Assembly (NCBI GenBank): GCA_944392155.1 | Contig: CALXVR010000017.1 | Location: forward strand, 1 to 36,816 | Source: an uncultured Alphaproteobacteria bacterium | Lineage (GTDB): Bacteria; Pseudomonadota; Alphaproteobacteria; RF32; CAG-239 | Length of the DNA stretch: 36,816 nt | Direction of reading: 5' to 3' | In this document: in pieces, positions 6,270 through 30,935 of the stretch | Numbering within the stretch: position 1 is the stretch's first letter | Layout: every line of letters starts with the position of its first letter | Position numbers and translations under genes: made by a program | Notes under the pieces: generated by a model | Seen by the model: only the letters and a program-made list of their open reading frames with translations | Database searches by the model: none | Told to the model about the DNA's origin: nothing

Positions 6270-7295
6270 TTAGTCAATTATCTTCATTGTGAACTTTTCG
6301 TTTGTCTGCGATGAAGTTTCGCTTTGCGGCGCAGGAATCATTCCGGTTTTGCGTTTTTGTTCCAAAATATCAATAATCATATCAAGCTCGGCAGCAGACG
6401 CATATTGCAAAACAACTTTTCCTCCGCCTTGCTTACTCGGTGAAATTTTGATGCGAAGTCCAAGGTTTTTATTTAAATCCTTTTCTATCTCCACAATATC
6501 TTCATCTTTGGCTTTTTTGGGTTCTTTGGGTTCAGGATTTTTTTGTTTAGCAACAAGTTCCTCAACCTGACGAACATTTAAATCTTTAGCAATTATCTGT
6601 TTGGCTAAAGCTTCAGCATTATCCAAACCAACCAAAGCTCTGGCATGACCGGCTGATAATTTTCCTTCACGAACCATTACTTTTACCGAATCGGGCAAGG
6701 ATAACAGACGTAATGTATTTGCAACGTGACTGCGTGATTTTCCGACAATTTGCGCTAAGGCTTCTTGCGTGTGTGAAAACTCATCTATCAATCGCTGAAA
6801 ACCCTCAGCCTCTTCTATGGCTGATAAATTTTCACGCAAAAGATTTTCGACTAACGCGACTTCCAGAACCTCTTTGTCGTCCATCTCTTTGACAATTACC
6901 GGAACGGACTTCAGTCCGGCAAGTTTTGATGCACGCCAACGGCGTTCACCGGCGATTATCTCATATTTGTCACCTTTGCGACGAACCAATAAAGGCTGTA
7001 AAACGCCTTTTTCTTTAATTGATTCAACCAAAGCATTGAGCGCTTCTTCGTCAAAATCCTTTCGCGGTTGGAACGGGCTTGGATAAAGAGAATCTATAGC
7101 AACAGTATCATCGGCAGATTGAACGGTTTGGGTCGGTGTATCATTCAAAGCTTCATCTAAGTTAAATTCGCTATCCCCCAATAAGGCTCCCAAACCACGA
7201 CCTAAGCTCTTTCTTTTGCCGTTATGTGATGTCTCTTCGTGTTTGGGCGTATCACTCAAAATATCTAAATCATCCAAATTTGAATTTTCTAACAT
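6270..7295 (-). CDS. parB: Chromosome partitioning protein ParB
   Basis: 341 residues. N-terminal 'GRGLGALL' motif (about 31-38) that contacts ParA, the ParB/Srx domain with 'YPSPFQPRKDF' and the CTP-binding 'GERRWRASKLAG' (box II), a helix-turn-helix with 'TQEALAQIVGKSRSHVAN', and a C-terminal dimerisation domain after a Lys/Glu-rich linker. ParB is a CTP-dependent clamp that loads at parS and spreads. Three parS-type sites are visible nearby (8656, 11215, 14057). The start overlaps the end of parA by 7 bases. This is a chromosomal, origin-linked ParB, judged by context and parS sequence. Confidence 0.97.
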   Translation of the reverse strand: MLENSNLDDLDILSDTPKHEETSHNGKRKSLGRGLGALLGDSEFNLDEALNDTPTQTVQSADDTVAIDSLYPSPFQPRKDFDEEALNALVESIKEKGVLQPLLVRRKGDKYEIIAGERRWRASKLAGLKSVPVIVKEMDDKEVLEVALVENLLRENLSAIEEAEGFQRLIDEFSHTQEALAQIVGKSRSHVANTLRLLSLPDSVKVMVREGKLSAGHARALVGLDNAEALAKQIIAKDLNVRQVEELVAKQKNPEPKEPKKAKDEDIVEIEKDLNKNLGLRIKISPSKQGGGKVVLQYASAAELDMIIDILEQKRKTGMIPAPQSETSSQTNEKFTMKIID

Positions 7296-8068
7296 GCCAA
7301 TAATTCCTTCTCTCTTTTCAATACTTCGCCTGTTAAGCTAATATAGGCCTGTGAGCCCGGGCATCTGAAATCATAAATTAATACGGGTTTACCATGTGAG
7401 GGCGCCTCGGATACTCTTACATTTCTCGGAATAACTGTTTGGTATACCTTTTTTCCAAAAAAGTTTCTGACATCATCCTCAACCATCTGAGATAAATTGT
7501 TTCTTTTGTCATACATTGTCAGTACAACGCCTTGCAGCTCTAATTTTGGATTAAAGGCACGTTTAATCTGGTTAATATTGCGAATCAAATCCGTAATGCC
7601 TTCAAGCGCCAAAAATTCACATTGAAGAGGCACAATGACGGCATCTGCGGCAACCAGTGCATTAATTGTTACCAAACTCAATGACGGAGGACAATCTATC
7701 AAAACATAGTCATAATTTATGACATCATTTCCTAATGCTTTGCGTAAAGCAAATTCCCTATGCTCTACATCAACCAACTCTACTTCGGCGCCAGCTAAAT
7801 CTGCTGATGACGGTACGAGAGAAAAATTAGGTATCTCTGTCCATACCACTGCTTCATTAATTCTTTTTTCGCCAAGAAGAACTTCGTAAGAAGATGCCAT
7901 TCTGCCGGTCTTATTAATTCCCATTGAAGTTGTGGCGTTGCCCTGAGGATCAAGGTCAATTACCAAAACTTTTTTTCCGGCAGCAGCCATTGCGGTTGCC
8001 ACATTAACCGTGGTGGTGGTTTTGCCAACACCGCCTTTACGATTTGCTATAGCAATTATTCTTGGCAT
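7289..8068 (-). CDS. parA: Chromosome partitioning ATPase ParA (Soj family)
   Basis: 259 residues. The deviant Walker A NRKGGVGKTTTTVN is at residues 8-21 with the signature Lys at the start of the loop, Walker B-like 'YDYVLIDCPPSL', and 'VIVPLQCEFLALEG'. This is the short chromosomal ParA type without an N-terminal DNA-binding extension. It binds DNA non-specifically as an ATP dimer and moves ParB-parS complexes, and thus origins, to the poles. Its start codon shares a base with the rsmG stop (8068), so the three genes form one coupled operon. Confidence 0.97.
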   Translation of the reverse strand: MPRIIAIANRKGGVGKTTTTVNVATAMAAAGKKVLVIDLDPQGNATTSMGINKTGRMASSYEVLLGEKRINEAVVWTEIPNFSLVPSSADLAGAEVELVDVEHREFALRKALGNDVINYDYVLIDCPPSLSLVTINALVAADAVIVPLQCEFLALEGITDLIRNINQIKRAFNPKLELQGVVLTMYDKRNNLSQMVEDDVRNFFGKKVYQTVIPRNVRVSEAPSHGKPVLIYDFRCPGSQAYISLTGEVLKREKELLAC

Positions 8069-10917: not shown

Positions 10918-12774
10918 TCACCTCTTCACATAGCCTAAAATTGCAGTTATCGCCGCAGGTGTAACTCCAGGAATTCGCGAAGCTTCACCAATCGTTGCCG
11001 GGCGGACCTTGCTCAATTTTGTAACCATCTCTCGCGACAATCCACCTATTTTTGAATAATCTATATCTTCTTTTAACTTAAGCTTTTCATCTTTTTTGAA
11101 TATTTCAATATCAGCCATTTGGCGTTTGATATATCCGGCATAGCGGGCATCTATTTCTATTTGTTCATAAACATCTGCCGGAATATCTGACAGCTCGGGA
11201 AAAATATCTGCTATTGTTTCACGTGAAACACCTTCATAAGACATAACATTAAAGGCGCTACGATGCGTGCCGTCTTTCTTTGTATGAACACCGAATCTCT
11301 CAAGTTCATTAGGTGTTATTGTTAGTTGTTCACTCAGTTTTCTATAGTGGTCTATTTTCTCTTTTTTCGCTTTAAATACAGTGTATCTGTGTTTGCCAAC
11401 ACAGCCAATTTCGTAGCCTTGCTCCGTTAAACGCGCATCCGCATTATCCGCACGCAAGAATAATCTATATTCTGAACGAGAAGTAAACATACGATAAGGC
11501 TCATCAACGCCTTTGGTGATTAAATCATCAACCATTACGCCAATATAGGCGTTACTGCGGTCAATGTAGAATTCGCGCCCTTTACCTTCGGCCTTTAAGG
11601 CTGCATTCACGCCGGCTAACAAACCTTGTGCCGCTGCTTCTTCATAACCGGTTGTGCCGTTAATTTGCCCTGCCAAAAATAGGTTGGGGGCTTTTTTTAC
11701 CTCTAGGGTATGAGTTAGCTCTTGCGGGTCTACATAATCATATTCAATGGCATAAGCGAAACGTAAAATTTCAACATTCTCCAAGCCCTTCATTGTGTGA
11801 ATAAAAGCGTCTTGCACATCTGCCGGCAGAGAGGTTGAAATACCATTCGGATAGACAACATCCGTATTCAAACCTTCCGGCTCCAGAAAAATCTGGTGGC
11901 TGGTGCGGTCGGCAAATTTGACAAGTTTATCCTCAATACTCGGGCAATATCTCGGACCGACACCGGTAATTAAACCTGAAAATAATGCGCATTTAGAAAA
12001 ATTGTCTCTGATTATCTTATGCGTTTCTTCGTTGGTTTGCGTGATATGGCATTCTATTTGTGGATTGGTAATCTTTTCCGTTAAATAAGAAAAAGGCTCG
12101 GGGTTTTCATCACCGCTTTGGGTTTCCAAAATATCCCAGTTAATAGTTTTACCGTTCAGACGGGCAGGGGTTCCGGTCTTTAAGCGGCCGACTTTAAGCC
12201 CCAGAGACTTTAAATACGGTGTTATACCGACACAAGCAGCATCGCCTACACGACCTCCCGGGGTTGCAACGTGACCGGTAAACATAATACCGTTCAAAAA
12301 AGTTCCTGTCGTTAAAACAACAGCCCCTGCCGTATATGCTGTTCCGTCTGCCAAAGTAACACCAACAACATTATTATCTTTTATCAGCAAGCCCTCAACC
12401 GGTGCCTCAATCAAGGTCAGATTTTCTTGTTCTTGCAAAGCCTCTAACATATATTTACGATAAAGTTCTCTGTCTGCTTGCGCACGAGGACCTCTGACGG
12501 CAGGTCCTTTCGAAGCATTAAGCATACGAAACTGTATGCCGGCTTTATCAATGACTCTACCCATTAAGCCATCAAGCGCATCTATTTCTCTGACCAAGTG
12601 ACCTTTACCCAAACCGCCTATTGCGGGATTGCATGACATCTCGCCAATGCGGTCTATACGATGTGTGATTAATGCGGTTTTTGCGCCCATTCTGGCAGCT
12701 GCTGCACAAGCCTCGCAACCGGCATGTCCACCACCGACAACAATAACATCAAATTTATTATCTTTATCGTTCAT
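10918..12774 (-). CDS. mnmG: tRNA uridine-5-carboxymethylaminomethyl modification enzyme MnmG (GidA)
   Basis: 618 residues, full length. FAD-binding GGGHAGCEA at about 13-21, '[19 protein letters not shown]', 'RGPRAQADR' and 'TGTPARLNG' are all MnmG signatures, and the C-terminal helical domain ends with '[18 protein letters not shown]'. With MnmE it installs the cmnm5 group on U34 of tRNAs. An exact parS site (11215-11230) lies in codons about 515-520 and encodes V-S-R-E-T. A TGC-TAAAAT extended -10 at 12801-12809 on the minus strand could drive it. It heads a unit with two HD genes and a PHP gene. Confidence 0.98.
11215..11230. promoter_or_regulatory. parS site 2 (exact palindrome, inside mnmG)
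   Basis: TGTTTCACGTGAAACA again, identical to the site in rsmG, 2.5 kb away from it and in the same reading frame relative to its host gene (encodes V-S-R-E-T). Confidence 0.95.
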
Positions 12775-12895: not shown

Positions 12896-14242
12896 TTATT
12901 TTCCAATACAGAAACTACCGAATATTTTATTTAATATATCATCAACCTCTATTCGTCCGGTAATCTTACCCAAGGCTCTTGCAGCAAGTCGAATGTCCTC
13001 TGCGGAAAGCTCTATCTCCTTACCAAAAGAAAAGCGTTCCAAATTATCCAAAGTTTCAACCAAAGCCTCACGATAACGCTGACGAGTGATAAGCAAATTA
13101 GAATTAGCTGTAAATCTTTCTTTGATTTGCTGATAGATAACCTCCATTAAGTCGGCTATGCCTTGTTTATGTTTTGCTGAGATAACAACACAACCTTGTT
13201 TTTTAAGTTCTGAACATTGTTCAAAAGTTAAATTATCAGATTTGTTAGCAACATATATCGCTTTGTTTTTAAAAGAATTTTTAATATTATCAAATATTTG
13301 AACAGAGTCTTTTGAAGCATCAAATAAACAAATAACCAAATCAGCATCAGCTATTTTGCGAAAAGCAATTTCTATACCTTGTTTCTCAATTTCTTCCTCT
13401 ACTTCACGAATGCCTGCCGTATCCGTAAACATTACGGGATAACCTTTAATATCCAAATGCACATCCACAGCATCTCGAGTGGTTCCGGCAATGGAAGATA
13501 CGATTGCTGCTTCTCGATTAACAACAGTGTTCAACAAACTTGATTTACCCGCATTCGGCGGACCAACAATAACAACACGAAAACCCTCACGCAATCTTTC
13601 GCCGATTGAATCAGTGTTCAAGTGTTCAGAAATGGCGGTTTTAAGTTTAAATACATCGTTCAAAAGCTTATCAACCAACTCTTGCGGAATGTCCTCATCC
13701 GGAAAATCTATATAAGCCTCAAGATAGGCCATTATCTTAATCAGCTCTTCTCGCCAGCCGTCATACAGATTTTTTAAGCCGCCTTCCATTTGGCGCATGG
13801 CATATTTTTGTTGCTCTGATGTTTCGGAATCAATCAAGTCAGCTAAACCTTCAGCTTCTGTTAAATCCATCTTGCCGTTGTGAAAAGCACGTCTGGAAAA
13901 TTCGCCGGGCTCTGCCATACGAAAGTCCGGAATTTTACTTAAGTTTTCCAGAACAGAAGCTATTACCGCTTTGGAGCCGTGAGTCTGAAACTCTACGATA
14001 TCTTCTCCCGTAAAAGAATGGGGCGCCTTAAAATAAAGCAGCAAACATTTATCTAATGTTTCACGGGAAACAATGTCCTTGATGTCAGTAAAATACGCAT
14101 AACGCGGTTTTAAGCTCTTTTCTTTTAAGTTTGTCAGCTTGGCAACTGCTTCTTTTGCCTTTGCTCCAGAAATACGAATTATAGCTACACCTGACTTGCC
14201 ATAAACCGTTGACAGGGCATAAATTGTTTGATTATCCATCAT
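12896..14242 (-). CDS. mnmE: tRNA modification GTPase MnmE (TrmE)
   Basis: 448 residues. N-terminal tetrahydrofolate-binding domain with 'APHSFTGEDIVEFQTHGS', helical domain, a GTPase domain with P-loop 'GPPNAGKSSLLN', the 'GTTRD' G2 loop and 'DTAG', and the invariant C-terminal CIGK with the catalytic Cys. It partners MnmG. Two adjacent ATGs (14242 and 14239) are possible; the second has the better spacing from AAGGAG. An extended -10 TGG-TATAAT at 14269-14277 (minus strand) probably drives it. A parS-like site lies in codons 57-62. Confidence 0.98.
   Translation of the reverse strand: MMDNQTIYALSTVYGKSGVAIIRISGAKAKEAVAKLTNLKEKSLKPRYAYFTDIKDIVSRETLDKCLLLYFKAPHSFTGEDIVEFQTHGSKAVIASVLENLSKIPDFRMAEPGEFSRRAFHNGKMDLTEAEGLADLIDSETSEQQKYAMRQMEGGLKNLYDGWREELIKIMAYLEAYIDFPDEDIPQELVDKLLNDVFKLKTAISEHLNTDSIGERLREGFRVVIVGPPNAGKSSLLNTVVNREAAIVSSIAGTTRDAVDVHLDIKGYPVMFTDTAGIREVEEEIEKQGIEIAFRKIADADLVICLFDASKDSVQIFDNIKNSFKNKAIYVANKSDNLTFEQCSELKKQGCVVISAKHKQGIADLMEVIYQQIKERFTANSNLLITRQRYREALVETLDNLERFSFGKEIELSAEDIRLAARALGKITGRIEVDDILNKIFGSFCIGK
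14057..14072. promoter_or_regulatory. parS-like site 3 (one mismatch, inside mnmE)
   Basis: TGTTTCACGGGAAACA: one base off the palindrome at the centre. Read in mnmE it still encodes V-S-R-E-T; the mismatch is a silent change in the Ser codon (TCA to TCC). ParB affinity may be reduced since the central CG-flanking bases matter. Confidence 0.75.
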
Positions 14243-17604: not shown

Positions 17605-19440
17605 TTAGAATCCTGCAGCTGTTTTAATTTTGTTTGATATATACGCATTTTGAACTTGTTTGCTAACAACATTTTCATCATTGCGGATGATGTTGGCAAG
17701 TCTTTTGTAAAAAACGCTTCCCGGCGCCAAAATACGGTCAAAATCTCCATTGTCAGCAAAGCGTAACAAGTTTCCTTTTACTCTTTCTTTCTGAGCTGAT
17801 TTTTCATCTTCGGACATCTGATTTCCTGTCATAAAAGAGTAAAAACGATGTACGGCCGCAGCTTCCAAAGCATCTCTTGATGAAATTGAGGCAACATTAT
17901 TAAGTAAATTATCATCTATCTTGACACTGCCGTTTACTAAATCACGATAGCCCAAAACATTACCATTTTCCTTAACGCCCCAAATTTGAGCTTGTGCCGT
18001 TCGGTAATCAAAGTTTTCAATTACTTTGCGACGGGCTTTTATATCTTCCTGATTAAACTCTGTGTGCTTACTTGCCTCATCAAAAACTTTTCCTAAAGCC
18101 TCTTTAATGCGGCGAGCGTAAACAATTTGTGAGCTTCCACCCTCAATTTTTGCACCGGTTTCCAACAAAACAACAGCTAACATAAAGGAAACTTTAGGCA
18201 TGGCCTCGCCACTTCTTAAAGCCTCGGCGATTTGTTTTCTATCCATGCTTTCAGTGTATTCGTCACCAAGCATTTTGGCAAAAGCCGGCATCTTGTTAGA
18301 GCCCATGGGCACCATATGGTCTAACAGATGATTATATTCATTATCTGATTTGGTGGTGTGAATCTTCTTCATCTCGGTTTCAAAAACTGCACGAGTTTGC
18401 GGATTATCAAAAATCTGTGATGTCAAAGATTGCGGATTTTCCAAAATATTTGCCATAAAGCCAAAAATCGGCTTTTCGGCTTCTATGCTTATTTGAATGA
18501 CGGAGCTGTCTTTTAACAAATCATTAGCCTGCATTGCGTGGATTGAGGCTAACTGCAAAGCACCAAGCTCTGTTTCCGGAGTGCCTTTTTCTTGATTGTA
18601 GGCTCTTTGTTTTTCCAACAATTTCATTACTTTTTTCAACATTCTGACATCATTTTGAAATTGTTGTTCAACTTGTGCCGAAAATTCTGTTAAGACATCT
18701 TTGTGTAATTCTGATAAAGATTTTACCGTATTCATTGTAAGATCTTTGAATTCCATACCTTTGGGCATAAATTCCTTGTTTATTAAATGGTGCCAACGCG
18801 CTTTTAATGATTTTGCCGCCAGAGATTTTTTCTCAAACATATCTTTTTTCATCTCTTTTTCATGCGCTTTTAATGTAGCTATTTTTTCAGGCGTATCATA
18901 TCCGGGAAGCGTCATGGCAATAACTTTCGGATAGATTTTGCTGTATAAATAAAGCGGAGGACCGTAAACAAAGGGGTCGCAAATCTCGGGGCCGGTCTGG
19001 TTATCAGTATTTACGCGGCCAGACATCAGAGATAAGTTAAACTTTTCACCGAAATGATGCGCTCTTGCTGCTTGGTTTACAAATTTATAGCAAGAGTGAA
19101 ACATATTATAGTCATTTTCTTCAACTGTTGCTTCAGCCCCACGCTTATCTCTTTGGCGCATGGGTCCGAGGTGGTCTGAAAAATCAAAACGAAAATCTTT
19201 TTTCAGTTGTTCATAAAGTTCTTTTGACAATAATTTTCTATTTTCTTCTTCTACTACGGCTGCGTAAGTATCGTTGACGCGCTTTAAAATCGCATGCATA
19301 AAGCTTTCGGCATAAGGAAAAAGCTTCGGATTATATGGATTTTTGTTTCCGTCGCTATAGGTTTCCCCTAACGAAGCTTCTGTATCAAGGTATGAAAATT
19401 CGGGTTTTTTGGCGAGTACTGCTTGACTATATTTGCTCAT
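17605..19440 (-). CDS. Unknown 611-residue cytoplasmic protein, co-transcribed with ldcA
   Basis: I do not recognise this protein. It is mostly helical and charged, with no signal peptide or membrane segment. Notable stretches: a Pro/Tyr-rich N-terminus ('NPYNPKLFPYAESF'), a Gly/Asn/Pro-rich segment at about 140-165 ('GRVNTDNQTGPEICDPFVYG'), then long Lys/Glu helices with coiled-coil-like spacing (about 180-300). No nucleotide-binding or zinc motif stands out. It sits between rho and mnmE, where other Alphaproteobacteria usually have no such gene, and is followed after 2 bases by ldcA. The 478-base gap upstream holds a promoter and a possible structured RNA. The Shine-Dalgarno is weak (AAGAG, about 9 bases before ATG 19440). 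It could be a lineage-specific structural or secreted factor; this is open. Confidence 0.7.
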   Translation of the reverse strand: MSKYSQAVLAKKPEFSYLDTEASLGETYSDGNKNPYNPKLFPYAESFMHAILKRVNDTYAAVVEEENRKLLSKELYEQLKKDFRFDFSDHLGPMRQRDKRGAEATVEENDYNMFHSCYKFVNQAARAHHFGEKFNLSLMSGRVNTDNQTGPEICDPFVYGPPLYLYSKIYPKVIAMTLPGYDTPEKIATLKAHEKEMKKDMFEKKSLAAKSLKARWHHLINKEFMPKGMEFKDLTMNTVKSLSELHKDVLTEFSAQVEQQFQNDVRMLKKVMKLLEKQRAYNQEKGTPETELGALQLASIHAMQANDLLKDSSVIQISIEAEKPIFGFMANILENPQSLTSQIFDNPQTRAVFETEMKKIHTTKSDNEYNHLLDHMVPMGSNKMPAFAKMLGDEYTESMDRKQIAEALRSGEAMPKVSFMLAVVLLETGAKIEGGSSQIVYARRIKEALGKVFDEASKHTEFNQEDIKARRKVIENFDYRTAQAQIWGVKENGNVLGYRDLVNGSVKIDDNLLNNVASISSRDALEAAAVHRFYSFMTGNQMSEDEKSAQKERVKGNLLRFADNGDFDRILAPGSVFYKRLANIIRNDENVVSKQVQNAYISNKIKTAAGF

Positions 19441-19918: not shown

Positions 19919-21172
19919 TTAAGAATTCATGGTATTGAAAAAGTCTTGATTATCTTTGGATTGTCTGAGCTTATCCAATAAAAATTCCATACCGTCCGTC
20001 ATGCCCATTTGCATCAAAACTCGACGCAAAACCCACATTTTGGAAAGTGTGGCTTTGTCTACCAAAAGTTCTTCTTTACGAGTACCCGAACGTGTAATAT
20101 CAATGGTCGGGAAGAGACGTTTGTCGGTTAATTTTCTATCCAAAATGATTTCGGAGTTACCTGTTCCTTTGAACTCTTCAAAAATAACTTCATCCATACG
20201 AGAACCCGTATCAATCAAGGCTGTGGCAATGATTGTTAAAGAACCACCTTCCTCTACATTACGAGCCGCACCGAGCAAGCGTTTCGGTCTTTGCAGAGCA
20301 TTGGCATCAACACCACCGGTTAAAACCTTACCAGATGAAGGAATAACCGTGTTATATGCGCGACCCAAACGTGTGATGGAATCAAGCAAGATGACTACGT
20401 CTTTTTTAGTTTCAACCAAACGCTTGGCTTTCTCAATAACCATCTCGGCAACCTGAACATGGCGTGCGGCCGGCTCATCAAAGGTGGAAGAAATAACTTC
20501 GCCTTTAACGGAACGGCTCATATCCGTCACTTCTTCAGGTCTTTCATCAATTAACAAAACCATCAAATATACTTCAGGGTGGTTTGTTGCTATGGCATGT
20601 GCAATATTTTGCAACATTACGGTTTTACCTGTTCTCGGAGGAGCAACAATCAGACCACGTTGACCTTTTCCTTGCGGCGCAATCAGGTCAATGATGCGTG
20701 TGGTATAATCTTTTTCACCGCAGATAATATCAAAGTCTAATTTTTTGGTTGGATAAAGAGGGGTTAAGTTATCAAAATTTACACGAAGTTTTGATTTTTC
20801 AGGATCTTCAAAATTAATGGTGTTAATCTTGGTTAAAGCAAAATACCGTTCATTGTCTTTCGGACCACGGATTTCACCTTCAACAGTATCACCGGTGCGT
20901 AGACCAAATTTTTTAACTTGAGCCGGTGATACATAAATATCATCCGGACTTGCTAAGTAATTTGACTCGGCAGAGCGTAAAAAACCAAAACCATCTTGCA
21001 AAACTTCTATTGTTCCTTCGCCATAAATGGTTTGGTCATCAGATGCCACTTTTCTCATAATGGCAAAAATTAAATCCTGAACACGCATGGAAGATGCGTC
21101 TTCTATTCCTAGTTCCTCCGCCTGAGTTAATAACTCCTTAGGAGATTTTTGCTTTAAATCTTTTAAATGCAT
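19919..21172 (-). CDS. rho: Transcription termination factor Rho
   Basis: 417 residues, standard length. The N-terminal helix bundle begins [15 protein letters not shown], then the cold-shock-like RNA-binding domain ('[20 protein letters not shown]'), then the ATPase with Walker A 'APPRTGKT', '[13 protein letters not shown]' and Walker B '[16 protein letters not shown]', and the Q/R-loop sequences near '[13 protein letters not shown]'. Rho is a hexameric RNA helicase that ends transcription. In Alphaproteobacteria rho is commonly near oriC with mnmE/mnmG. An AAGG lies about 5 bases before the ATG. Its promoter must be inside the proposed oriC. Confidence 0.99.
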
Positions 21173-21368
21173 TGTAACCTTGAAATATATTTGATGTGAA
21201 AAAATTAAATAAGAAAGGGGAAAGTATCCCTCTGCATAGTATTATTAGAATTAATGCATGTCTGTTTTATATTATTTAAATGGGTGAAAGTCAATTAAAT
21301 GTTGTTTGATTTTTATGCACAGTCAAAAAGCCCCATATAAATATTTTAAAAGTTTAGTAGTTATTAGT

Positions 21369-21413
21369 ATATCCCTGCTGCTTATGTGGATAAGTTTTTA
21401 TACACAGGGATAT
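21369..21413. repeat. Inverted repeat framing two opposed DnaA boxes
   Basis: ATATCCCTG (21369-21377) and CAGGGATAT (21405-21413) are perfect 9-bp inverted copies. Between them lie the minus-strand box at 21385-21393 and the plus-strand box at 21398-21406, 4 bases apart. The frame overlaps the second box by 2 bases. Confidence 0.85.
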
Positions 21414-21463
21414 CCAAAAGTTGAAAGAGTGTTAATAAGATTGTTAACGAAATTTAAGAATTA

Positions 21464-21478
21464 TTAACGAATCGTTAA
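21464..21478. promoter_or_regulatory. CtrA-type site TTAA-N7-TTAA in oriC
   Basis: TTAACGAATCGTTAA, a perfect palindrome with the TTAA half-sites spaced by 7 as in CtrA boxes. It is embedded in a row of further TTAA elements (21432, 21444, 21454) with spacings of 8, 6 and 6. In this AT-rich DNA TTAA is common, so the single exact spacing is only moderate evidence. Confidence 0.4.
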
Positions 21479-21700
21479 CTTTGTTTTTCTTGATTCTGTA
21501 AACTTTAAATTGAGTAATTTGTTGATAAGTTTTTTTATCAACCCTTGTGCGAAAAAATATACCCCTGTGCGTAAAGTTGTATATTGGATTTTACATTGTG
21601 GTGATTAGTTTGTATAAATAGGCAAGAGAGCTTAGTTATGCACAGATTTTGGCTTGTTTGTGTATAAGTGAGTCAGGGGTTTGATTTTAAGGAATTTTTT

Positions 21701-22282
21701 ATGAAATTAGCAGCTATCACCGGTTCTATCGGTTGCGGAAAAACGACTTTGGCTTCAATGGTCAGACGTTTGGGATATTGTGTTTATGACGTAGATGGTT
21801 GGGTTCGCCGTCTTTATTTTAAAAAAGATTTTATTAAGGTTATTGAACAGCATTTTCCGCAAGTGGTAGAAAACGGAAAAGTTAATAAAAGAGCTTTACG
21901 TAATATTGTCTTTAATGATAATGCCCGTCTTAAGGAATTGGAAGGACTTATCCATCCTTTTTTACGTCGCTATCTTAAAAAAGTTATTCATAGACACGCA
22001 CAGAGCAATGATTTGTTTTTCTTAGATGTTGCTTTGTTGTTTGAAATGAGATGGGATATTTATTGCGATTGCATTATTGTTGCCGATGTGGATTATGAAA
22101 CGCAGAAAAAACGCGTGATGGAGCGCGATAAAATTTCGGCTGAAGATTTTGAAAAGATTAACAACGTACAGTTAAGCAACAAGGCTAAAGTTTTGTTGGC
22201 TGATGTGGTTGTGGATACGGGAAGGCCGCAAAATCAAGTCTTTGCCGATATGGTTAGTATTGTTGACGGATTGGAATGTTAA
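21701..22282 (+). CDS. coaE: Dephospho-CoA kinase
   Basis: 193 residues from ATG 21701. A GTG at 21668 would add 11 residues (MSQGFDFKEFF), but the AAGGA at 21689-21693 is placed correctly for 21701, and the protein then begins MKLAAITGSIGCGKTT, as CoaE proteins do. P-loop GSIGCGKT at 8-15, 'DVALLFEMRWD' (P/A-L-L-F-E motif) and 'KRVMERD' LID region. It catalyses the last step of coenzyme A synthesis. First gene right of the origin; overlaps dnaQ by 7 bases. Confidence 0.95.
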   Translation: MKLAAITGSIGCGKTTLASMVRRLGYCVYDVDGWVRRLYFKKDFIKVIEQHFPQVVENGKVNKRALRNIVFNDNARLKELEGLIHPFLRRYLKKVIHRHAQSNDLFFLDVALLFEMRWDIYCDCIIVADVDYETQKKRVMERDKISAEDFEKINNVQLSNKAKVLLADVVVDTGRPQNQVFADMVSIVDGLEC

Positions 22283-22974
22283 ATATGGTTAGAGAGATTG
22301 TTTTTGATACGGAAACGACGGGTTTTAATGCCGAAGAAGGTGAGCGCTTGGTTGAAATCGGCGCTGTTGAACTTATTAACCATATGCCGACGGGCAAAAC
22401 TTATCATCAATATATTAACCCTGAAAAAGAAGTTCCGGAAGAAGCTTATAAAGTTCATGGTCTATCTTATGATTTTTTGAAGGATTTTCCGACTTTTGAT
22501 AAGGTGGCTGATGAGTGGCTGGAGTTTATCGGAGAAGACAGTATTCTGGTTGCGCATAATGCACAATTTGATATTAACTTTGTGAACTATGAACTTAAAC
22601 AGCTCGGAAAACCAACTCTTTCTTGGGATAGAGTAGTTGATACTCTGGAAATTGCCCGCAATATGTTTCCGGGCGCCAGAAATAATTTGGATGCTTTGTG
22701 TAAGCGTTTCGGGGTTGATAACAGCAGTCGTACAAACCACGGAGCGTTACTCGATGCGGAGTTGTTGGCTAAAGTTTACTTGGAGCTTTTGGGCGGTGAA
22801 GAACCGACAATGGGCTTGGAAAGCAAGCAGGAAACCAAGAAAACCGCAACTTTTGAAAGTCATGAAAACAAAACTTATCGCGAGCCGCGCTCTTTTCCTC
22901 CGACAGAAGAGGAACTGGAAGCGCACAAAACTTTTTTGGAAAAAAAGCTTAAAGATGCCGTTTGGTTGTCTTAA
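22276..22974 (+). CDS. dnaQ: DNA polymerase III epsilon subunit (3'-5' exonuclease)
   Basis: 232 residues. DEDDh exonuclease: ExoI 'FDTETTG' (Asp11, Glu13), ExoII 'AHNAQFDINFV' (Asp99), ExoIII 'HGALLDA' (His155, Asp160). The C-terminal tail (about 172-232) is charged and would carry the polymerase-binding segment. ATG 22276 overlaps the coaE stop; ATG 22285 (MVREIVFD) would match the typical family start and is equally possible. It is the proofreading subunit. Order coaE-dnaQ next to oriC is common in Alphaproteobacteria; secB, often next, is absent here. Confidence 0.96.
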   Translation: MLNMVREIVFDTETTGFNAEEGERLVEIGAVELINHMPTGKTYHQYINPEKEVPEEAYKVHGLSYDFLKDFPTFDKVADEWLEFIGEDSILVAHNAQFDINFVNYELKQLGKPTLSWDRVVDTLEIARNMFPGARNNLDALCKRFGVDNSSRTNHGALLDAELLAKVYLELLGGEEPTMGLESKQETKKTATFESHENKTYREPRSFPPTEEELEAHKTFLEKKLKDAVWLS

Positions 22975-22977
22975 TTC

Positions 22978-23061
22978 TTATTTGCTTCTAAAATAGAAAG
23001 CTAAGGAAACTATGAGAATTTCCAGTATGACGAAGCATATGGTGCTTGCATTTAATTCCAT
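22978..23061 (-). CDS. Possible 27-residue single-TM protein after the SDR gene
   Basis: A short frame, ATG at 23061 to TAA at 22978-22980, 2 bases past the SDR stop and on the same strand. The peptide begins MELNASTIC and continues with 'FVILEILIVSLAFYF' and 'RSK*', a clear single membrane segment with basic residues at the end. An AAGG at the end of the SDR gene is 7 bases before the ATG. Coding is unproven; a competing 27-residue frame on the plus strand (23012-23095) looks less protein-like. Confidence 0.35.
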   Translation of the reverse strand: MELNASTICFVILEILIVSLAFYFRSK

Positions 23062-23063
23062 AA

Positions 23064-23831
23064 CTATACCTTATGCGGGAGCTTGGCATAAATAAAGTCA
23101 CTCAAGCAGTTGGGCAAAATGGACATTAGCCAGGTTGCTAAGCGCATCGGCCATGGGAAAGCTATTAAGCCGACATTATTTTCCACTCTATCCGCAATGA
23201 TTTTTGCCGCATTTTCTGCCGACATAAAGAAAGGCATAGGGCAAGTGTTTTTGTCGGTAATGCGTGATTTTACAAAACCCGGGCAGACGACATTAACCTG
23301 AATGTTGTATGGTTTTAGGTCTGAACGCAAAGCTTCGCCATAAGCTTTGACACAAGCTTTGCTGGCGCTGTATGACGGGCAAGAAGGCAAGCCGTGATAA
23401 CCGGCAATGGAAGACATTATGACCAGAGTTTTGTTTTTGTCTTTGCGGTTTTTGTATATCTCCATTGCGGGTATGATTGTGTTTAATACGCCGAAAACAT
23501 TGGTGTTGAAAGTATTGTAAATATTTTCGGGGATTTCTTGTAAGGTTGCAACACCCGCATTAGCATAAACAATGTTTAAAGGCGCAATGTCTTCGCATTC
23601 TTGTATCCAGTTTTTAGTTGCTTCTTTATCCGTTACATCCAAAATTTTGGCATAAACCTTGACATTGTATCTTTCGCAGGCTTTTTGTACGGATTCTAAG
23701 CGTTTGGGGTCACGACCGGAGATGAATAAGTTTGCTGCCTTTTCAGTTATGGCATAATGTCTGGCAAGAGCTTCTCCAATGCCTGAAGATGCGCCGGTGA
23801 TGAGAATGTTTTGTTTCTTTTTGGTCGTCAT
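23064..23831 (-). CDS. Short-chain dehydrogenase/reductase (SDR)
   Basis: 255 residues, classical SDR. Cofactor motif TGASSGIG (12-19), a basic 'SGRDPKR' after strand 2 favouring NADP(H), 'NAGVA' (91-95), catalytic Ser140/141, Tyr154 and Lys158 in 'YSASKA', and 'VCPGFVKS'. The C-terminus ends with a hydrophobic stretch ('WPMRLATWLMSILPNCLSDF') as in membrane-associated SDRs similar to the YdfG/DltE group. The substrate is unknown. It stands alone, leftward, between dnaQ and yicC. Confidence 0.88.
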   Translation of the reverse strand: MTTKKKQNILITGASSGIGEALARHYAITEKAANLFISGRDPKRLESVQKACERYNVKVYAKILDVTDKEATKNWIQECEDIAPLNIVYANAGVATLQEIPENIYNTFNTNVFGVLNTIIPAMEIYKNRKDKNKTLVIMSSIAGYHGLPSCPSYSASKACVKAYGEALRSDLKPYNIQVNVVCPGFVKSRITDKNTCPMPFFMSAENAAKIIADRVENNVGLIAFPWPMRLATWLMSILPNCLSDFIYAKLPHKV

Positions 23832-23909
23832 ATTGTCCCCGAATGGTAAATTATTATTAAGTATTTATATATATACTAAGGTTAAATTTAGGTAAAAAGG
23901 AGAGAGTTT

Positions 23910-24815
23910 GTGTCTGTTTCAAGTATGACCGGTTTTGCCAGAGAAAACGGCGTTACCGTTTTTAATGATAAAAAACAATGTTCTTGGTTTTTTGAGCTTA
24001 AAAGCGTGAACGGAAAATCTTTGGATGTTAAAACTAAGTTGCCGTCTTATGTGGACAGCTTGTCTATGTTTGTTAAAAATGAAGCGGCAAATTATTTTGC
24101 CAGAGGAAGCCTGAGTGTTTATTTAGAAGTTGATTTTGATAAGAGTAACGAGATTGTGTTTAATGAGGAATTGTTAAAACAATTTGTTGAAAAAGCTATC
24201 AAAATCTATGAAGAAAACAGCGATAAACTCTCTAAACCATCGGTTAGCGAGATGCTTGCACTTAAAGGTGTTGCAGAAGTTGCCGATAATGTATTAAACG
24301 AAGATGAAACGGCTTTGTTAATCAATGATTTGCAAAAGGGTTTTCAAAAAGCTTGTGATTCGCTGTTGTTGGCTCGTCAGGCCGAAGGTGAAAAAATAAG
24401 CTTGGCTTTGAAGGAAATTTTGAATAAAATTTCGACAGATGTCGGTTTAATTGAGCAAAAGGCAGATTTGTTACCACAAAAATTGAAAGAAAGGTTGTCT
24501 GCTCAGATTAAGGAATTATTGAGTTCGGATATACAGGTTTCTGAAGACAGATTAGCTCAAGAGGTTTGTTTGTATGTGGCCAGAGCTGATATCAGAGAAG
24601 AAATTGACAGATTGAAGGCTCACATTCAAACAGCACTGAATCTGTTGGATTCAGGTGAAGCGGTTGGCAGAAGATTAGACTTTTTGTGTCAGGAATTGAA
24701 CAGAGAAGCAAACACGACCTGCTCAAAGTCTTGTGATATAGAAATAACAAATCTGGGAATGGAACTGAAAACTTTGATTGAACAGTTTCGCGAACAAGTA
24801 CAAAACATGGAGTAA
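23910..24815 (+). CDS. yicC: YicC family endoribonuclease
   Basis: 301 residues from a GTG at 23910, which has an AAAGGAG-type Shine-Dalgarno 7-8 bases before it; an ATG at 23925 would remove the first five residues of the conserved start 'SVSSMTGFAR'. N-terminal YicC domain and C-terminal DUF1732 domain with 'ARADIREEIDRLKAHI' and 'GRRLDFLCQELNREANTTCS', both diagnostic. YicC proteins are now known as RNA-cleaving enzymes in E. coli. Five bases before gmk, the usual yicC-gmk order. Confidence 0.95.
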   Translation: MSVSSMTGFARENGVTVFNDKKQCSWFFELKSVNGKSLDVKTKLPSYVDSLSMFVKNEAANYFARGSLSVYLEVDFDKSNEIVFNEELLKQFVEKAIKIYEENSDKLSKPSVSEMLALKGVAEVADNVLNEDETALLINDLQKGFQKACDSLLLARQAEGEKISLALKEILNKISTDVGLIEQKADLLPQKLKERLSAQIKELLSSDIQVSEDRLAQEVCLYVARADIREEIDRLKAHIQTALNLLDSGEAVGRRLDFLCQELNREANTTCSKSCDIEITNLGMELKTLIEQFREQVQNME

Positions 24816-24820
24816 AAATA

Positions 24821-25483
24821 ATGGATGAGATTATTAATAGACTGAAAAAAGTTCGCCGTGGCGCAATGTTTATTATTGAGGCTCCTTCAGGAACAGGTAA
24901 AAGCGCCGTTGTTAAGGAGATTTTAAAAAGAGACAGCAATATCAAATTTTCAGTTTCGGTTACAACTCGTAAGCCGCGTGAAAATGAGGTTGAAGGCGTT
25001 GATTATTACTATGTTACCAATGAACAGTATGATGAGTTTTTAGCTCAAGACGCCTTTTATGAACATGTGGAATCGCAATATGGCGATCGATATGGTACAC
25101 TTCGTTCAGAAGTAGACAGTTTTATCAATATCGGCCAAGATGTTATTTTTGATATGGATTGGGCCGGTGCCAGACAAATGCGCAAAAAAGCAGGCTCGGA
25201 TGTTGTTTCTATCTATTTATTACCGCCGTCTATTAAGGAATTGCGTCGTCGTTTGGAGAGTAGAGGAACTGATTCTCCCGAAGTTATTAATAAACGTATG
25301 AGCATTATTTTAGATAAAATAAGCCATTGGGATGAGTTTGATTATGTAATCGTTAATGTTAATTTGGAAGAGACGATTACTAAAGTGCAAAAGATTATTT
25401 CCGGAGAGAGAATGAAAAGAGTTCGTCAGGTTGGACTGACAGATTTTGTTAAGGAGCTTATTAAGGAAGCTGAAAATGGTTGA
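24821..25483 (+). CDS. gmk: Guanylate kinase
   Basis: 220 residues. P-loop APSGTGKS (21-28), 'SVSVTTRKPRENEVEGVDYY' (GMP-binding Arg and Tyr), 'YGTLRSEVD', 'IFDMDWAGARQM' and 'RRLESRGTDS' lid. Converts GMP to GDP. Slightly longer than E. coli Gmk at the N-terminus (about 13 residues before the core). It overlaps the next gene by 8 bases. Confidence 0.97.
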   Translation: MDEIINRLKKVRRGAMFIIEAPSGTGKSAVVKEILKRDSNIKFSVSVTTRKPRENEVEGVDYYYVTNEQYDEFLAQDAFYEHVESQYGDRYGTLRSEVDSFINIGQDVIFDMDWAGARQMRKKAGSDVVSIYLLPPSIKELRRRLESRGTDSPEVINKRMSIILDKISHWDEFDYVIVNVNLEETITKVQKIISGERMKRVRQVGLTDFVKELIKEAENG

Positions 25484-25976
25484 GGTCTTTTGGGATCGCA
25501 GGGGAAAAGAAAAGTTTGCCGATGATGTTATTCCTGTTGAGCAAAAAGGTTTTTTTGCCATTTTGCTTAAGGATAACAAGGTGTTGGTTACTTATCCGCC
25601 GCAAGTGAGTGTTCCCGAATTTCCGGGAGGGGCCGTCAGCCGAAAAGAAGACTTCAGAAGTTGTTTGTTTCGGAAACTTTTTGAGGAAACAGGTATTGAG
25701 TTTATGCTTGATGCCGGCATAAAGCAATATGAGCAAGATATTAATTATTTTGCCGAAGATGCCAGACCTTTTGGTGAGTTTTGTCATTATAATATGACAT
25801 TTATTATCTATGATGCTTCTTCCTTTGGTTTTGATATAAAAAAGGAAAAGTGGAAGACCCCGGAAAACGGAGAAGCAGAATGGGTAGATATTAAAGATAT
25901 TTTTAATGAAAAAATTAAAATCAATTATGTGCACTGGCTAGCTTTTCAACAGCTTTTTGCTGAAAAGTGCAAATAG
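25476..25976 (+). CDS. Nudix hydrolase-like protein with altered Nudix box
   Basis: I start at ATG 25476 (166 residues, MVEVFWDRRG), which overlaps the gmk stop and has AAGGA about 9 bases before it; a longer frame from 25446 lies deep within gmk. Residues about 49-71 align with the Nudix box G-x5-E-x7-R-E-U-x-E-E-x-G-U: 'GAVSRKE', 'DFRSCLF', 'RKLFEETGI'. The Glu after Arg is Lys (codon AAA), while the E-E pair remains. In MutT that Glu binds metal, so activity may be reduced or the site may use another residue. Coupling with gmk suggests a nucleotide link, but the substrate is unknown. It meets the next gene tail to tail with no gap. Confidence 0.82.
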   Translation: MVEVFWDRRGKEKFADDVIPVEQKGFFAILLKDNKVLVTYPPQVSVPEFPGGAVSRKEDFRSCLFRKLFEETGIEFMLDAGIKQYEQDINYFAEDARPFGEFCHYNMTFIIYDASSFGFDIKKEKWKTPENGEAEWVDIKDIFNEKIKINYVHWLAFQQLFAEKCK

Positions 25977-26546
25977 TTAGTTGTTGATAGATGTCAGGCT
26001 GTTGCGTTGTTCGCGGGTCATGGCTTTGTATACTTGAGCTGCGTTGTTGTTGGCTCCCGGAACATTAAGAGATGCCGCTTTTTGGTATAAATGAAAAGCT
26101 TTAATTAAATCAGGTTTGATTCCTATGCCGCGTGCGTTCATCCAAGCATAAATTTCTATAGCGTCAGCCTCGTTGTTGTTGACGTGTTTTTGTAATTCTT
26201 CCAAATCAACAGGGGTTATGTTTTGATTTTTTATGGCTTTTAACGTATTTTGCCATTTTTCCTGAGCAGCTTTAAGCTCAGCTTCTCTTTTGGCTCTTTG
26301 GCTTTCTAAATTTACGGCTTTAATGTCTAAAGGTTTGGTTTCTTCCGGAGGGGTGATTTTTTTGGAACTTTCCTCATCTAAAACAAAATCGGGAGCATAG
26401 CGGTTTTTGACGAACATGGGTAAATAACCGCTGTTGTCCGAGCGTACCAAATCCCGATAGATTTCATCTAAGCTGGTGGCTTGCGCAGGCAAAACATAAA
26501 GCAGCGATGCAAAAATAACAAAGAACAGTGTTTTTTTTGTTTTCAT
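25977..26546 (-). CDS. Secreted or periplasmic Sel1-like repeat protein
   Basis: 189 residues. N-terminal signal peptide: MKTKK, a hydrophobic core (LFFVIFASLLYVLP) and AQA at 21-23, a signal peptidase I site. Middle part (60-115) is Lys/Glu/Gln-rich and likely helical. The end (about 128-172) has one to two Sel1/TPR-like repeats: 'DAIEIYAWMNARGIGIKPDL' followed by 'AFHLYQKAASLNVPGANNN'. Sel1 repeats serve protein-protein contacts; the partner is unknown. Convergent with the nudix gene. Confidence 0.7.
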   Translation of the reverse strand: MKTKKTLFFVIFASLLYVLPAQATSLDEIYRDLVRSDNSGYLPMFVKNRYAPDFVLDEESSKKITPPEETKPLDIKAVNLESQRAKREAELKAAQEKWQNTLKAIKNQNITPVDLEELQKHVNNNEADAIEIYAWMNARGIGIKPDLIKAFHLYQKAASLNVPGANNNAAQVYKAMTREQRNSLTSINN

Positions 26547-26645
26547 TTCTTTATTTTTAATAAATTGTCGTTATGCTTATACTACTTAAGACCCATCCGT
26601 ATGAAAAGGATATTTTGGGGTTTATGAACAAATTAGAGGCGTAAA

Positions 26646-27575
26646 ATGCAAAAGATTTATAATTCAGTTACCGAAATGGTCGGAAAAACTCCGTTGCTCA
26701 GACTGCATCGTTTGGAAAAACATTTTAAAATTAAGGCTCATCTTTTAGCTAAATGTGAGTTTTATAATCCTGTTTTTTCCATTAAAGACAGAGTTGCTTT
26801 AAAAATGATTGAAAAAGCCGAAGAAAAACAAAAGATTGGTGAAGATACGGTTTTTGTAGAAGCAACCTCGGGTAATACGGGTATCGGACTGGCTGCAATT
26901 TGTGCCGCGAAAGGCTATAAGTTGGTGATTATTATGCCTGAAAACATGTCAAAGGAAAGAATTTCGCTCATTAAACTTTTCGGGGCGGAAGTTATTTTGA
27001 CACCTGCCGAAGAAGGTATGACAGGCTCAATTAATAAAGCAGATATTTTGGCTGAGAAAAATAAAAATGTTATTTTATTGCGACAATTTGATAACGAAGC
27101 TAATCCCGATGCGCATAAGTTTGGGACAAGTCTTGAGATTTTGGAAGATACGGGCGGCGAAGTTGATTGTTTGGTCAGTGCAATAGGGACTGCCGGAACA
27201 ATCAATGGTATAGCTTCTGCGTTAAGAACGAATAATCCGGATTTATATGTGGTTGGTGTTGAACCCGCGGCTAGTCCGGTTTTGAACGGAGGAAAAGCCG
27301 GTCCTCATAAAATTTATGGTATCGGAGCGGGTTTTGTACCGAAGTTTTATGATGAAAAGCTGGTTAATGAAGTGTTGGATATTAAGGACGAGGAAGCTGT
27401 TGATATGGCGAAAACAGTTGCTAAAACAGATGGTTTAGCCGTCGGAATTTCGGCCGGAGCTGCTTTGGCTGCGGCGGTTAAAGTTGCGGAGAGAGACGAA
27501 ATGAAGGGCAAAAATATTGTGGTTATCTTGCCTGACGCCACCGAAAGATATTTGTCTACGGACCTGTTTGATTAA
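26646..27575 (+). CDS. cysK: Cysteine synthase A (O-acetylserine sulfhydrylase)
   Basis: 309 residues, fold type II PLP enzyme. 'MVGKTPLLRL' at the start, PLP Lys47 in 'NPVFSIKDR', substrate loop TSGNTG (74-79), PLP phosphate loop 'GTAGTINGI' and 'GISAGAALAA' near the end. It makes cysteine from O-acetylserine and sulfide. The usual P-G-G-S-V-K-D-R is here N-P-V-F-S-I-K-D-R, a mild change that occurs in the CysK/CysM group. cysE is not adjacent. GAGG lies about 7 bases before the ATG. Confidence 0.93.
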   Translation: MQKIYNSVTEMVGKTPLLRLHRLEKHFKIKAHLLAKCEFYNPVFSIKDRVALKMIEKAEEKQKIGEDTVFVEATSGNTGIGLAAICAAKGYKLVIIMPENMSKERISLIKLFGAEVILTPAEEGMTGSINKADILAEKNKNVILLRQFDNEANPDAHKFGTSLEILEDTGGEVDCLVSAIGTAGTINGIASALRTNNPDLYVVGVEPAASPVLNGGKAGPHKIYGIGAGFVPKFYDEKLVNEVLDIKDEEAVDMAKTVAKTDGLAVGISAGAALAAAVKVAERDEMKGKNIVVILPDATERYLSTDLFD

Positions 27576-27593
27576 GATTGAGGGTTGCCGTTG

Positions 27594-28526: not shown

Positions 28527-28574
28527 GAATATTTTTTATATTCTGGCGGCAGTTTTATTACAGAAGTATAGCAG

Positions 28575-30314: not shown

Positions 30315-30935
30315 CGGTTTGGGAAAGTCAAAAATCTTGTTTTGATATTTATATATTCCACAAGCAGCTAAGTCCTCTATCGGCGGACAATTAAGCATTT
30401 TGATGACGTGAAGGCTTAGTCCGCTCGGTTTGTTTAAAAATCTTTCAACACCGTCGCCGACCAATGTGATTTTAGGACCACGTAAAAGACTAATTATTTC
30501 TTCATAGGTTCCGGCAGAAGGTTCGGTGATTTTTTTTCTTTTGTCATCAAAGAGTTGGTAGTAAAAATCTTCGCGTTTGGTTTCAATGATAACGGCGTTA
30601 ATCGTGGCGATTTCGTCCGGCTGGAGACCGTGAACATAAGCTTCAAAAGCCGAAACGCCGATAATTTTTGTGTTTGGGCAGGCTAAGCCGAAAGCTCTGG
30701 CGGCCGAAATGGACGAACGAACGCCGGTAAAAGACCCCGGGCCGGTGCAAACAACAGCCAAGCCTAAATCTTTGAATTGAAGATTTTCGGATTCCAGGGT
30801 GTTGCGGATTTCGGGGATAAGAACTTCCGCTTGTCCAAAATCCATTTCTTCTTGGAAGGAATCTACCGTACGTCCGTCTTTGCTTAGTAGTATGGAGACG
30901 CCGTTGGCGGTGGTATCAAAAGCCAAAGTATACAT
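30279..30935 (-). CDS. tsaB: tRNA threonylcarbamoyladenosine biosynthesis protein TsaB
   Basis: 218 residues from ATG 30935 (MYTLAFDTTANG), which matches TsaB N-termini; a GTG at 30944 would add three residues but is only 3 bases from the AAGG. 'CTGPGSFTGVRSSISAARAF' is the TsaB signature. It is the non-catalytic partner of TsaD in t6A synthesis; tsaE is at 4.7-5.1 kb. Its 3' end overlaps the PAP2 gene by 36 bases antisense, with no terminator. Confidence 0.94.
   Translation of the reverse strand: MYTLAFDTTANGVSILLSKDGRTVDSFQEEMDFGQAEVLIPEIRNTLESENLQFKDLGLAVVCTGPGSFTGVRSSISAARAFGLACPNTKIIGVSAFEAYVHGLQPDEIATINAVIIETKREDFYYQLFDDKRKKITEPSAGTYEEIISLLRGPKITLVGDGVERFLNKPSGLSLHVIKMLNCPPIEDLAACGIYKYQNKIFDFPKPLYLRAPDVCVK

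What the first reader, a model, noticed from the sequence alone, without database searches (positions are those of the whole stretch)
21173..21700. Proposed chromosomal origin between rho and coaE
Five 9-mers fit TTATNCACA exactly and three are close, in both orientations, in a gap with an AT-rich side, where gene direction flips. parAB and parS are 7-13 kb away. Each sign alone is weak in AT-rich DNA; together they make oriC the best reading.
Basis: partly seen in the sequence, partly recalled or inferred. Interest (0 to 1): 0.72.

Follow-up and report, generated by a model that had tools for sequence, protein, structure and literature searches.

The report
CtrA-gated chromosome replication origin
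A 528-base gap between the divergent genes rho and coaE, in an uncultured relative of gut Alphaproteobacteria, is very likely the place where the chromosome starts to be copied, and it holds sites, conserved among its relatives, at which the cell-cycle regulator CtrA would likely bind, a control of origins known mainly from Caulobacter.

Summary
Five exact TTATNCACA boxes lie in the rho-coaE gap; of the genome's 64 such sites no other two on one contig are closer than about 1.3 kb. In 78 of 80 named relatives rho and coaE diverge around the same gap, with 189 exact boxes against 3.9 expected. Third-codon GC skew is higher right of the gap in 75 of 75 measurable relatives. In a 5-contig relative the only minus-to-plus switch seen in the sampled stretches is here, with the reverse switch roughly opposite. 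hemE and COG1806, the usual flanks, have no match in the genome; outgroups suggest stepwise gene loss around a fixed origin. New: a TTAA-N7-TTAA array (143 against 18 expected; 12 of 13 family genera sampled), GANTC enrichment, and genes for CtrA, GcrA and a CcrM-like enzyme, suggesting Caulobacter-like control. Unexplained: in the window's genus the skew is strong on one arm and near zero on the other. No experiment shows that the origin fires or that CtrA binds.

The parts
21173..21700 (.). predicted oriC: the intergenic gap between divergent rho and coaE
21313..21321 (+). DnaA box TTATGCACA, followed by a GC block (GCCCC)
   Evidence: a box or near-box at this place is conserved in the alignment
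21335..21372 (.). AT-rich stretch between boxes; candidate unwinding element (inferred)
   Evidence: sequence; conservation; no unwinding test
21385..21393 (-). DnaA box TTATCCACA, left member of the inner pair
   Evidence: loose inner-pair pattern in 46 of 78 gaps, 1.6 expected
21398..21406 (+). DnaA box TTATACACA, right member of the inner pair
   Evidence: weaker conservation
21430..21438 (-). near box TTATTAACA (one mismatch) that shares a TTAA with the array
   Evidence: TGTTAATAA or its complement in 63 of 78 gaps, 4.0 expected
21432..21478 (.). array of five TTAA (starts 21432, 21444, 21454, 21464, 21475; spacers 8, 6, 6, 7): candidate CtrA sites
   Evidence: enrichment in relatives
21464..21478 (.). 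TTAACGAATCGTTAA: full TTAA-N7-TTAA with a GANTC (21469) inside
   Evidence: same letters in 5 of the 5 relatives printed there
21492..21496 (.). GANTC, predicted CcrM-type methylation site (a third is at 21670)
   Evidence: enrichment in relatives
21515..21527 (-). exact match to the IHF consensus (recalled) WATCAANNNNTTR
   Evidence: relatives 38 against 9.2 expected, but most often at another place, about 40 bp before coaE
21520..21528 (-). near box TTATCAACA (one mismatch)
21566..21574 (-). near box TTACGCACA (one mismatch)
21266..21294 (-). predicted rho promoter TTGACT-N17-TATAAA
   Evidence: sequence; loose pattern in 76 of 78 gaps (1.8 expected), tighter one in 61 (0.2 expected)
21590..21618 (+). 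predicted coaE promoter TTTACA-N17-TATAAA
   Evidence: sequence; TTTACA form in 18 of 78 gaps (0.5 expected), looser form in 38 (9.7 expected)
21636..21644 (+). DnaA box TTATGCACA, left member of the outer convergent pair
   Evidence: pair (second box in a looser form) in 68 of 78 gaps, 0.0 expected
21659..21667 (-). DnaA box TTATACACA, right member of the outer convergent pair
19919..21172 (-). rho (transcription termination factor)
   Evidence: NCBIfam TIGR00767
21701..22282 (+). coaE (dephospho-CoA kinase); an in-frame GTG start lies at 21668
   Evidence: NCBIfam TIGR00152
22276..22974 (+). dnaQ (DNA polymerase III epsilon)
   Evidence: NCBIfam TIGR01406
8656..8671 (.). parS, perfect match, inside rsmG
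11215..11230 (.). parS, perfect match, inside mnmG
14057..14072 (.). parS, one mismatch, inside mnmE
6270..8068 (-). parB and parA
   Evidence: parB over a ParB domain cut-off; parA matches ParA-type models below their cut-offs

Best explanation
The rho-coaE gap is very likely the chromosomal origin oriC, where DnaA would bind the inner and outer boxes and melt the AT-rich DNA beside them, and where phosphorylated CtrA would likely hold initiation back by occupying a TTAA-N7-TTAA array next to the inner boxes. Shown here: the box cluster, its conservation, the skew step, the array, the GANTC and IHF-type enrichment, and the presence of genes for DnaA, CtrA, GcrA and a CcrM-like enzyme. Inferred: that the cluster fires, which stretch melts, that CtrA binds and represses, that methylation reports replication state, and that three nearby parS sites segregate the copied origin. 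The unusual flanks are best explained by gene loss: outgroups keep hemH-hemE on the rho side and COG1806-maf-aroE on the coaE side, some lack part of these, and this family lacks all of them at the locus while the origin stays in place.
For: Box cluster without equal in the own genome. 78 of 80 relatives with the gap, 189 exact boxes against 3.9 expected, 4.9 per kb against 0.03 per kb in the flanks. Skew step at the gap and one opposite switch in G013. hemE and COG1806 without a match, controls positive in 8 and 3 of 14; outgroup gene series. Array: 143 against 17.9 expected at N7; N6 and N8 mildly raised (31 and 33), N3-N5 and N9-N12 at or below chance; 3.70 per kb against 0.035 per kb in flanks; in 23 of 29 gaps and 12 of 13 genera of the family sample. 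CtrA over the NCBIfam cut-off, 401 against 350 bits; GcrA; a RAMA domain whose only NCBIfam match is CcrM, below that model's whole-protein cut-off because only 93 residues were scanned. parS.
Against: No binding, firing or marker-frequency data. Exact boxes are few in many relatives (0 in 1, 1 in 15, 2 in 27 of 78), though boxes with up to one mismatch number 5-12 in each of the 78. By exact boxes alone the gap does not stand out in relative G027: two in the gap, and pairs 233 and 519 bp apart elsewhere. The window has a single true N7 site; its other TTAA spacers are 8, 6 and 6, and 14 of 78 gaps have none. N7 sites overlap DnaA boxes only slightly more than random placement (66 against 54.6, sd 5.7). 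The IHF-type site in relatives sits mostly elsewhere than in the window. The left arm's skew near zero is not what a plain bidirectional origin predicts. Canonical DnaA-trios were not found.
Confidence: 0.9

Rival explanations
1. The gap is an ordinary oriC and the TTAA array is only an AT-rich spacer or serves another regulator; CtrA has no role.
For: One N7 site in the window; 14 of 78 gaps without one; in Caulobacter, lowering CtrA affinity at all five origin sites only mildly perturbed the replication programme (PMC4468827, passages).
Against: Enrichment peaks sharply at N7 (143 against 18), about 100-fold over flanks, concentrated 220-300 bp before coaE; a CtrA orthologue is present.
Confidence: 0.27
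2. The cluster is a DnaA-titration or DnaA-regulated promoter region (datA-like, or control of rho and coaE), and the origin is elsewhere.
For: Both genes have conserved promoter-like sequences among the boxes.
Against: The skew step lies at the gap in the window and in 3 of 3 long contigs and right exceeds left in 75 of 75 loci; no other such box cluster in the own genome; the position matches the hemE-COG1806 origin site of other Alphaproteobacteria after gene loss (PMC1914354, passages).
Confidence: 0.04
3. Chance: AT-rich DNA throwing up 9-mers where a gene-direction switch mimics a skew step.
For: AT-rich gap; whole-sequence skew does follow gene direction in part.
Against: Shuffles give 3.9 boxes for 189 seen; the step is present at third codon positions of genes on both strands and outside genes.
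Confidence: 0.01

Closest known systems
Caulobacter crescentus Cori (between hemE and COG1806)
   Same: Homologous neighbourhood on the evidence of outgroups, DnaA sites, an IHF-type site, CtrA-type sites, parS and parAB a few kb away (the last for Caulobacter recalled).
   Different: Flanked by rho and coaE because hemE and COG1806 are gone; carries consensus TTATNCACA boxes, whereas Cori uses weaker G- and W-boxes (PMC4468827, passages).
Predicted origins of Rickettsia, Wolbachia, Ehrlichia, Anaplasma (PMC1914354, passages)
   Same: Small AT-rich gap with DnaA, CtrA and IHF-type sites in many of them; flanking genes rearranged in some.
   Different: In the passages seen those keep hemE on one side; here hemE has no match in the genome.
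Bacillus-type basal unwinding system (DnaA boxes plus DnaA-trios, PMC8287927; passages and its search-rule section)
   Same: Boxes with an AT-rich stretch beside them; the loose published pattern is met at one exact minus-strand box, 21385 (and at two other boxes, one of them exact).
   Different: No run of three canonical trios in the window; such runs are rarer than chance across the relatives (17 of 649 boxes, 44.9 expected; the strict form of the trio is recalled).

Membership tests
Alphaproteobacterial oriC | Cluster of DnaA boxes in an AT-rich intergenic gap, unique in the genome | tested here: met
   for the own genome; in relative G027 exact boxes alone do not single out the gap
Alphaproteobacterial oriC | At the replication-associated GC-skew switch | tested here: met
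   on contigs, not a closed chromosome; arms unequal in the window's genus
Alphaproteobacterial oriC | Beside hemE and/or COG1806 | tested here: not met
   Neither gene has a match in the genome, so the landmark itself is not met; outgroup gene order explains it, and Wolbachia and relatives already depart from the pair
Alphaproteobacterial oriC | parS and parAB nearby | tested here: met
Alphaproteobacterial oriC | Replication starts there | not testable with these tools
   needs marker frequency or a genetic test
CtrA-regulated origin (Caulobacter Cori type) | Multiple TTAA-N7-TTAA sites in the origin | tested here: inconclusive
   Relatives: 64 of 78 gaps have at least one and 49 two or more; family sample 23 of 29. 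The window itself has one exact site plus off-spacing neighbours
CtrA-regulated origin (Caulobacter Cori type) | CtrA orthologue encoded | tested here: met
CtrA-regulated origin (Caulobacter Cori type) | CtrA sites overlap DnaA boxes | tested here: inconclusive
   66 of 143 overlap, 54.6 (sd 5.7) by random placement; TGTTAATAA element in 63 of 78
CtrA-regulated origin (Caulobacter Cori type) | CtrA binds and represses initiation | not testable with these tools
   none
Basal unwinding system (DnaA-trios) | Three or more DnaA-trios within 16 bp of a box | tested here: inconclusive
   Loose pattern met, strict (recalled) pattern absent in the window; relatives 17 of 649 boxes against 44.9 expected

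The most novel reading that the evidence does not exclude
A whole family of gut Alphaproteobacteria runs a CtrA- and CcrM-gated origin that arose independently of Caulobacter, with the methylation site built into the CtrA site in the window's genus, and the two forks leaving this origin imprint different mutational signatures, so that one arm of the chromosome is nearly strand-neutral.
Probability: 0.25. Interest if true: 0.75.

Novelty: new member of a known kind. Interest (0 to 1): 0.48.

Why it matters
It places the origin of an uncultured family whose standard origin landmarks are lost, so replication-rate estimates from metagenomic coverage can be anchored there. A 2015 review (PMC4468827, passages) says CtrA sites are not seen in origins outside Caulobacter, Rickettsia possibly excepted; an array found in 12 of 13 genera sampled in another lineage makes the question of how often CtrA was recruited to origins testable. 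Chromosomes with skew on one arm only are listed among hard-to-explain data in SkewDB (PMC8941118, passages); here is a family with nearly symmetric and one-armed members to compare.

Tried and rejected
Partly unidirectional initiation as the cause of the one-armed skew: it should scale GC and TA skew alike, but in G041 the left arm has GC near zero while TA keeps the right arm's sign and size (-0.02 and +0.10, against +0.29 and +0.12 on the right); not supported. DnaA-trios: not conserved. Rfam: no match in the window. sigma-70 scan: 4 hits against 3.3 by shuffling; it missed the two conserved promoter-like pairs that the alignment showed. dif in G013: best match has 8 mismatches to the recalled E. 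coli dif, not claimed. GATC/SeqA control: GATC is depleted in the gaps (6 against 43), no support. Papers: of four searches only named the family; it gave two papers (listing only), neither about origins by title; two searches listed 10 of 19 and 10 of 48. Most subscription papers and all preprints are not held, so this is weak evidence of absence. Other papers seen only in passages: PMC7858055, PMC2275245.

Full report
What is there. The window is the whole of contig C17 of a 1,626,133-bp, 53-contig genome. Between rho (19919-21172, minus) and coaE (21701-22282, plus; followed by dnaQ) lies a 528-bp gap (names by NCBIfam). It holds five exact TTATNCACA boxes and five more with one mismatch. 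Genome-wide there are 64 exact sites; the pattern read backwards gives 57; apart from this gap no two on one contig are closer than about 1.3 kb. The best DnaA-domain match is on contig C1, whose single exact box is about 25 kb from it; no exact box lies in its 3,483-bp locus. A second, weak DnaA-domain match (249-aa frame, contig C2) has none in its locus either.

Conservation. Of 49 genomes drawn from the family, 44 have a coaE match. Loci were returned for 30 of these; rho lies upstream and divergent in 29 of 30, the other being a contig end. These 29 gaps come from 13 genera and hold 83 exact boxes (1.4 expected), at least one in each. A scan of named genomes gave the best 80 loci of 141; 25 of the 29 gaps recur among them letter for letter, so the two sets are not independent. 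The nearest record with a genus-like name is Azospirillum sp. CAG:239; most are titled uncultured Alphaproteobacteria or proteobacterium, several from deer, yak and other gut samples. In 78 of 80 the gap is readable, 412-624 bp long (median 487); the other two had no rho match, with coaE 452 and 514 bp from the contig end. The 78 gaps hold 189 exact boxes (3.9 expected) and 675 with up to one mismatch (85.7 expected); exact counts per gap are 0 in 1, 1 in 15, 2 in 27, 3 in 21, 4 in 13 and 5 in 1. Density is 4.9 per kb in gaps and 0.03 per kb in the flanks. The outer convergent pair (second box in a looser form) is in 68 of 78 (0.0 expected). A genome-wide count in three relatives (the G041 list was cut) shows 4 exact boxes in 356 bp at the gap in G041; 2 at the gap in G013 with no other pair within 1 kb; but in G027 2 at the gap and pairs 233 and 519 bp apart elsewhere, so exact boxes alone would not find its origin. 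The best conserved blocks in the alignment are the boxes, the AT-rich stretch, part of the TTAA region and two promoter-like pairs.

Skew. At third codon positions the window has GC skew -0.015 (minus genes) and +0.028 (plus genes) left of the gap, and +0.347 and +0.338 right of it; between genes -0.07 and +0.35, the right-hand figure including 300 bp of the gap itself. Contigs of relatives give left and right means of -0.02 and +0.29 (G041, same genus), -0.09 and +0.15 (G013), -0.10 and +0.26 (G027) over 130-229 kb a side. Of the 78 named loci 75 were measurable on both sides and the right exceeds the left in 75 of 75, in one (L117) by only 0.03. For G013, whose 5 contigs total about 1.50 Mb, I read C4 whole and sampled about half of each other contig: C2 switches from plus to minus between 320 and 350 kb, C1 and C3 are plus, C5 is minus. 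A few 20-kb bins are near zero. Adding contig lengths by sign gives arms of about 731 and 773 kb, so the gap sits nearly opposite the terminus-type switch; a small second switch in the unsampled half is not excluded.

Why between rho and coaE. In Caulobacter and Rickettsia the origin lies between hemE and COG1806 (PMC1914354, passages read). Here hemE, COG1806 and aroE have no match in the genome, with positive controls in 8, 3 and 14 of 14 genomes; maf is on another contig. Of 115 genomes drawn from the class 93 have a coaE match; I fetched longer stretches for 18 of them. rho is upstream and divergent in 13 of 18; the other five show no rho there, one of them only a hit of 20% identity. Pfam scans of 20 intervening reading frames from seven of the loci give a series: L224 has rho, UPF0093, hemH, hemE, boxes, COG1806, maf, aroE, coaE; L217 has hemE, boxes, COG1806, maf, aroE (one 144-aa frame next to its rho was not scanned); L214 has hemH, hemE, boxes, maf, aroE; L215 and L227 have rho, boxes, maf, aroE, coaE; the window's family has rho, boxes, coaE. 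L216 and L221 were scanned for one frame each (COG1806 and hemE). In six of the seven loci whose near-boxes were listed these cluster in the gap where direction changes; L216 shows only one near-box there. No shuffle control was run on these outgroups. Gene loss around a fixed origin is the simplest reading; the order of losses was not put on a tree.

Predicted regulation. Across the 78 gaps TTAA-N7-TTAA occurs 143 times (17.9 expected, largest shuffle total 27). Spacings N6 and N8 give 31 and 33; N3-N5 and N9-N12 give 7 to 18, at or below chance. 64 of 78 gaps have at least one; most copies lie 220-300 bp before coaE, beside the inner boxes. In the family sample it is in 23 of 29 gaps and 12 of 13 genera (60 against 5.9 expected). 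Flank density is 0.035 per kb against 3.70 in gaps. The window has one exact site, TTAACGAATCGTTAA at 21464, with the same letters in the five relatives printed; its other TTAA spacers are 8, 6 and 6. Between rho and coaE of eight outgroup loci, five have no N7 site and three have one or two, not all in the origin gap, so the array may be a feature of this family. GANTC is enriched (176 against 49) and GATC depleted (6 against 43) in the gaps; 16 of 143 N7 sites contain a GANTC (1.1 expected by spacer shuffling). The IHF-type consensus is enriched (38 against 9) but most copies lie nearer to coaE than the window's. N7 sites overlap DnaA boxes in 66 of 143 cases, 54.6 (sd 5.7) by random placement, so competition by overlap is only weakly suggested. 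The genome has a CtrA orthologue (74% identity to a recalled Caulobacter-type sequence; over the NCBIfam cut-off). GcrA is found in 120 of 126 family genomes including this one, and there is a RAMA domain whose NCBIfam match is CcrM, below that model's whole-protein cut-off since only 93 residues of a 370-aa frame were scanned. [quoted passage not shown] I therefore infer CtrA control here; nothing tests it.

What does not fit. In the window's genus the skew is one-armed. Of 20 other contigs of the own genome sampled (20 kb each, of 52 others), 12 have third-position GC skew of size 0.21 or more, with TA skew of the same sign in 12 of 12, and 8 have 0.09 or less. In G041, 10 of 18 other contigs sampled are at 0.21 or more and 8 at 0.13 or less. 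G013 is nearly symmetric. Close to the gap the 78 named loci also show it: left mean +0.03, right +0.30. SkewDB reports around 250 chromosomes in which one strand's skew is at least three times the other's, among hard-to-explain data (PMC8941118, passages). A share of unidirectional initiations would scale GC and TA alike, which G041 does not show. This remains unexplained.

Verdict. The finding is right: oriC, with confidence about 0.9 on sequence evidence. Its kind is known. The parts that go beyond the ordinary are the CtrA-type array conserved across the family, the loss of both standard landmarks, and the one-armed skew.

Noticed in passing
window 1-21172 against 21701-36816; G041 and own-genome contigs: Replication-type GC skew is about +0.3 on the right arm and about zero on the left; contig samples of the genome fall into a strong and a weak class.
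   Followed up: partly
   Followed up: no
window 8845-10914: A PHP-type and two adjacent HD-type proteins (names recalled from motifs, not scanned) lie between rsmG and mnmG.
   Followed up: no
window 17605-19440: A 611-aa protein near rho that I did not identify.
   Followed up: no
own genome: No match to the shikimate dehydrogenase N-terminal domain (aroE) in a genome listed as 100% complete, with 14 of 14 controls positive.
   Followed up: no
G013:C2:345442 (L264): Palindromic AT-rich 28-mer near the plus-to-minus skew switch, 8 mismatches to the recalled E. coli dif; possible dif, weak.
   Followed up: no
L089-L093, 236-246 bases before coaE (window 21464): A GANTC sits inside a perfect CtrA-type palindrome TTAACGAATCGTTAA in the five relatives printed.
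   Followed up: partly
window 21214-21233, minus strand: One terminator-like stem with a T-run in the leader of rho (1 found, 0.3 by shuffling); could be rho autocontrol or chance.
   Followed up: no
own genome C2:27801-28190: Second, short DnaA-domain protein (249-aa frame, 24.5 bits), perhaps an Hda-type regulator (name recalled).
   Followed up: no
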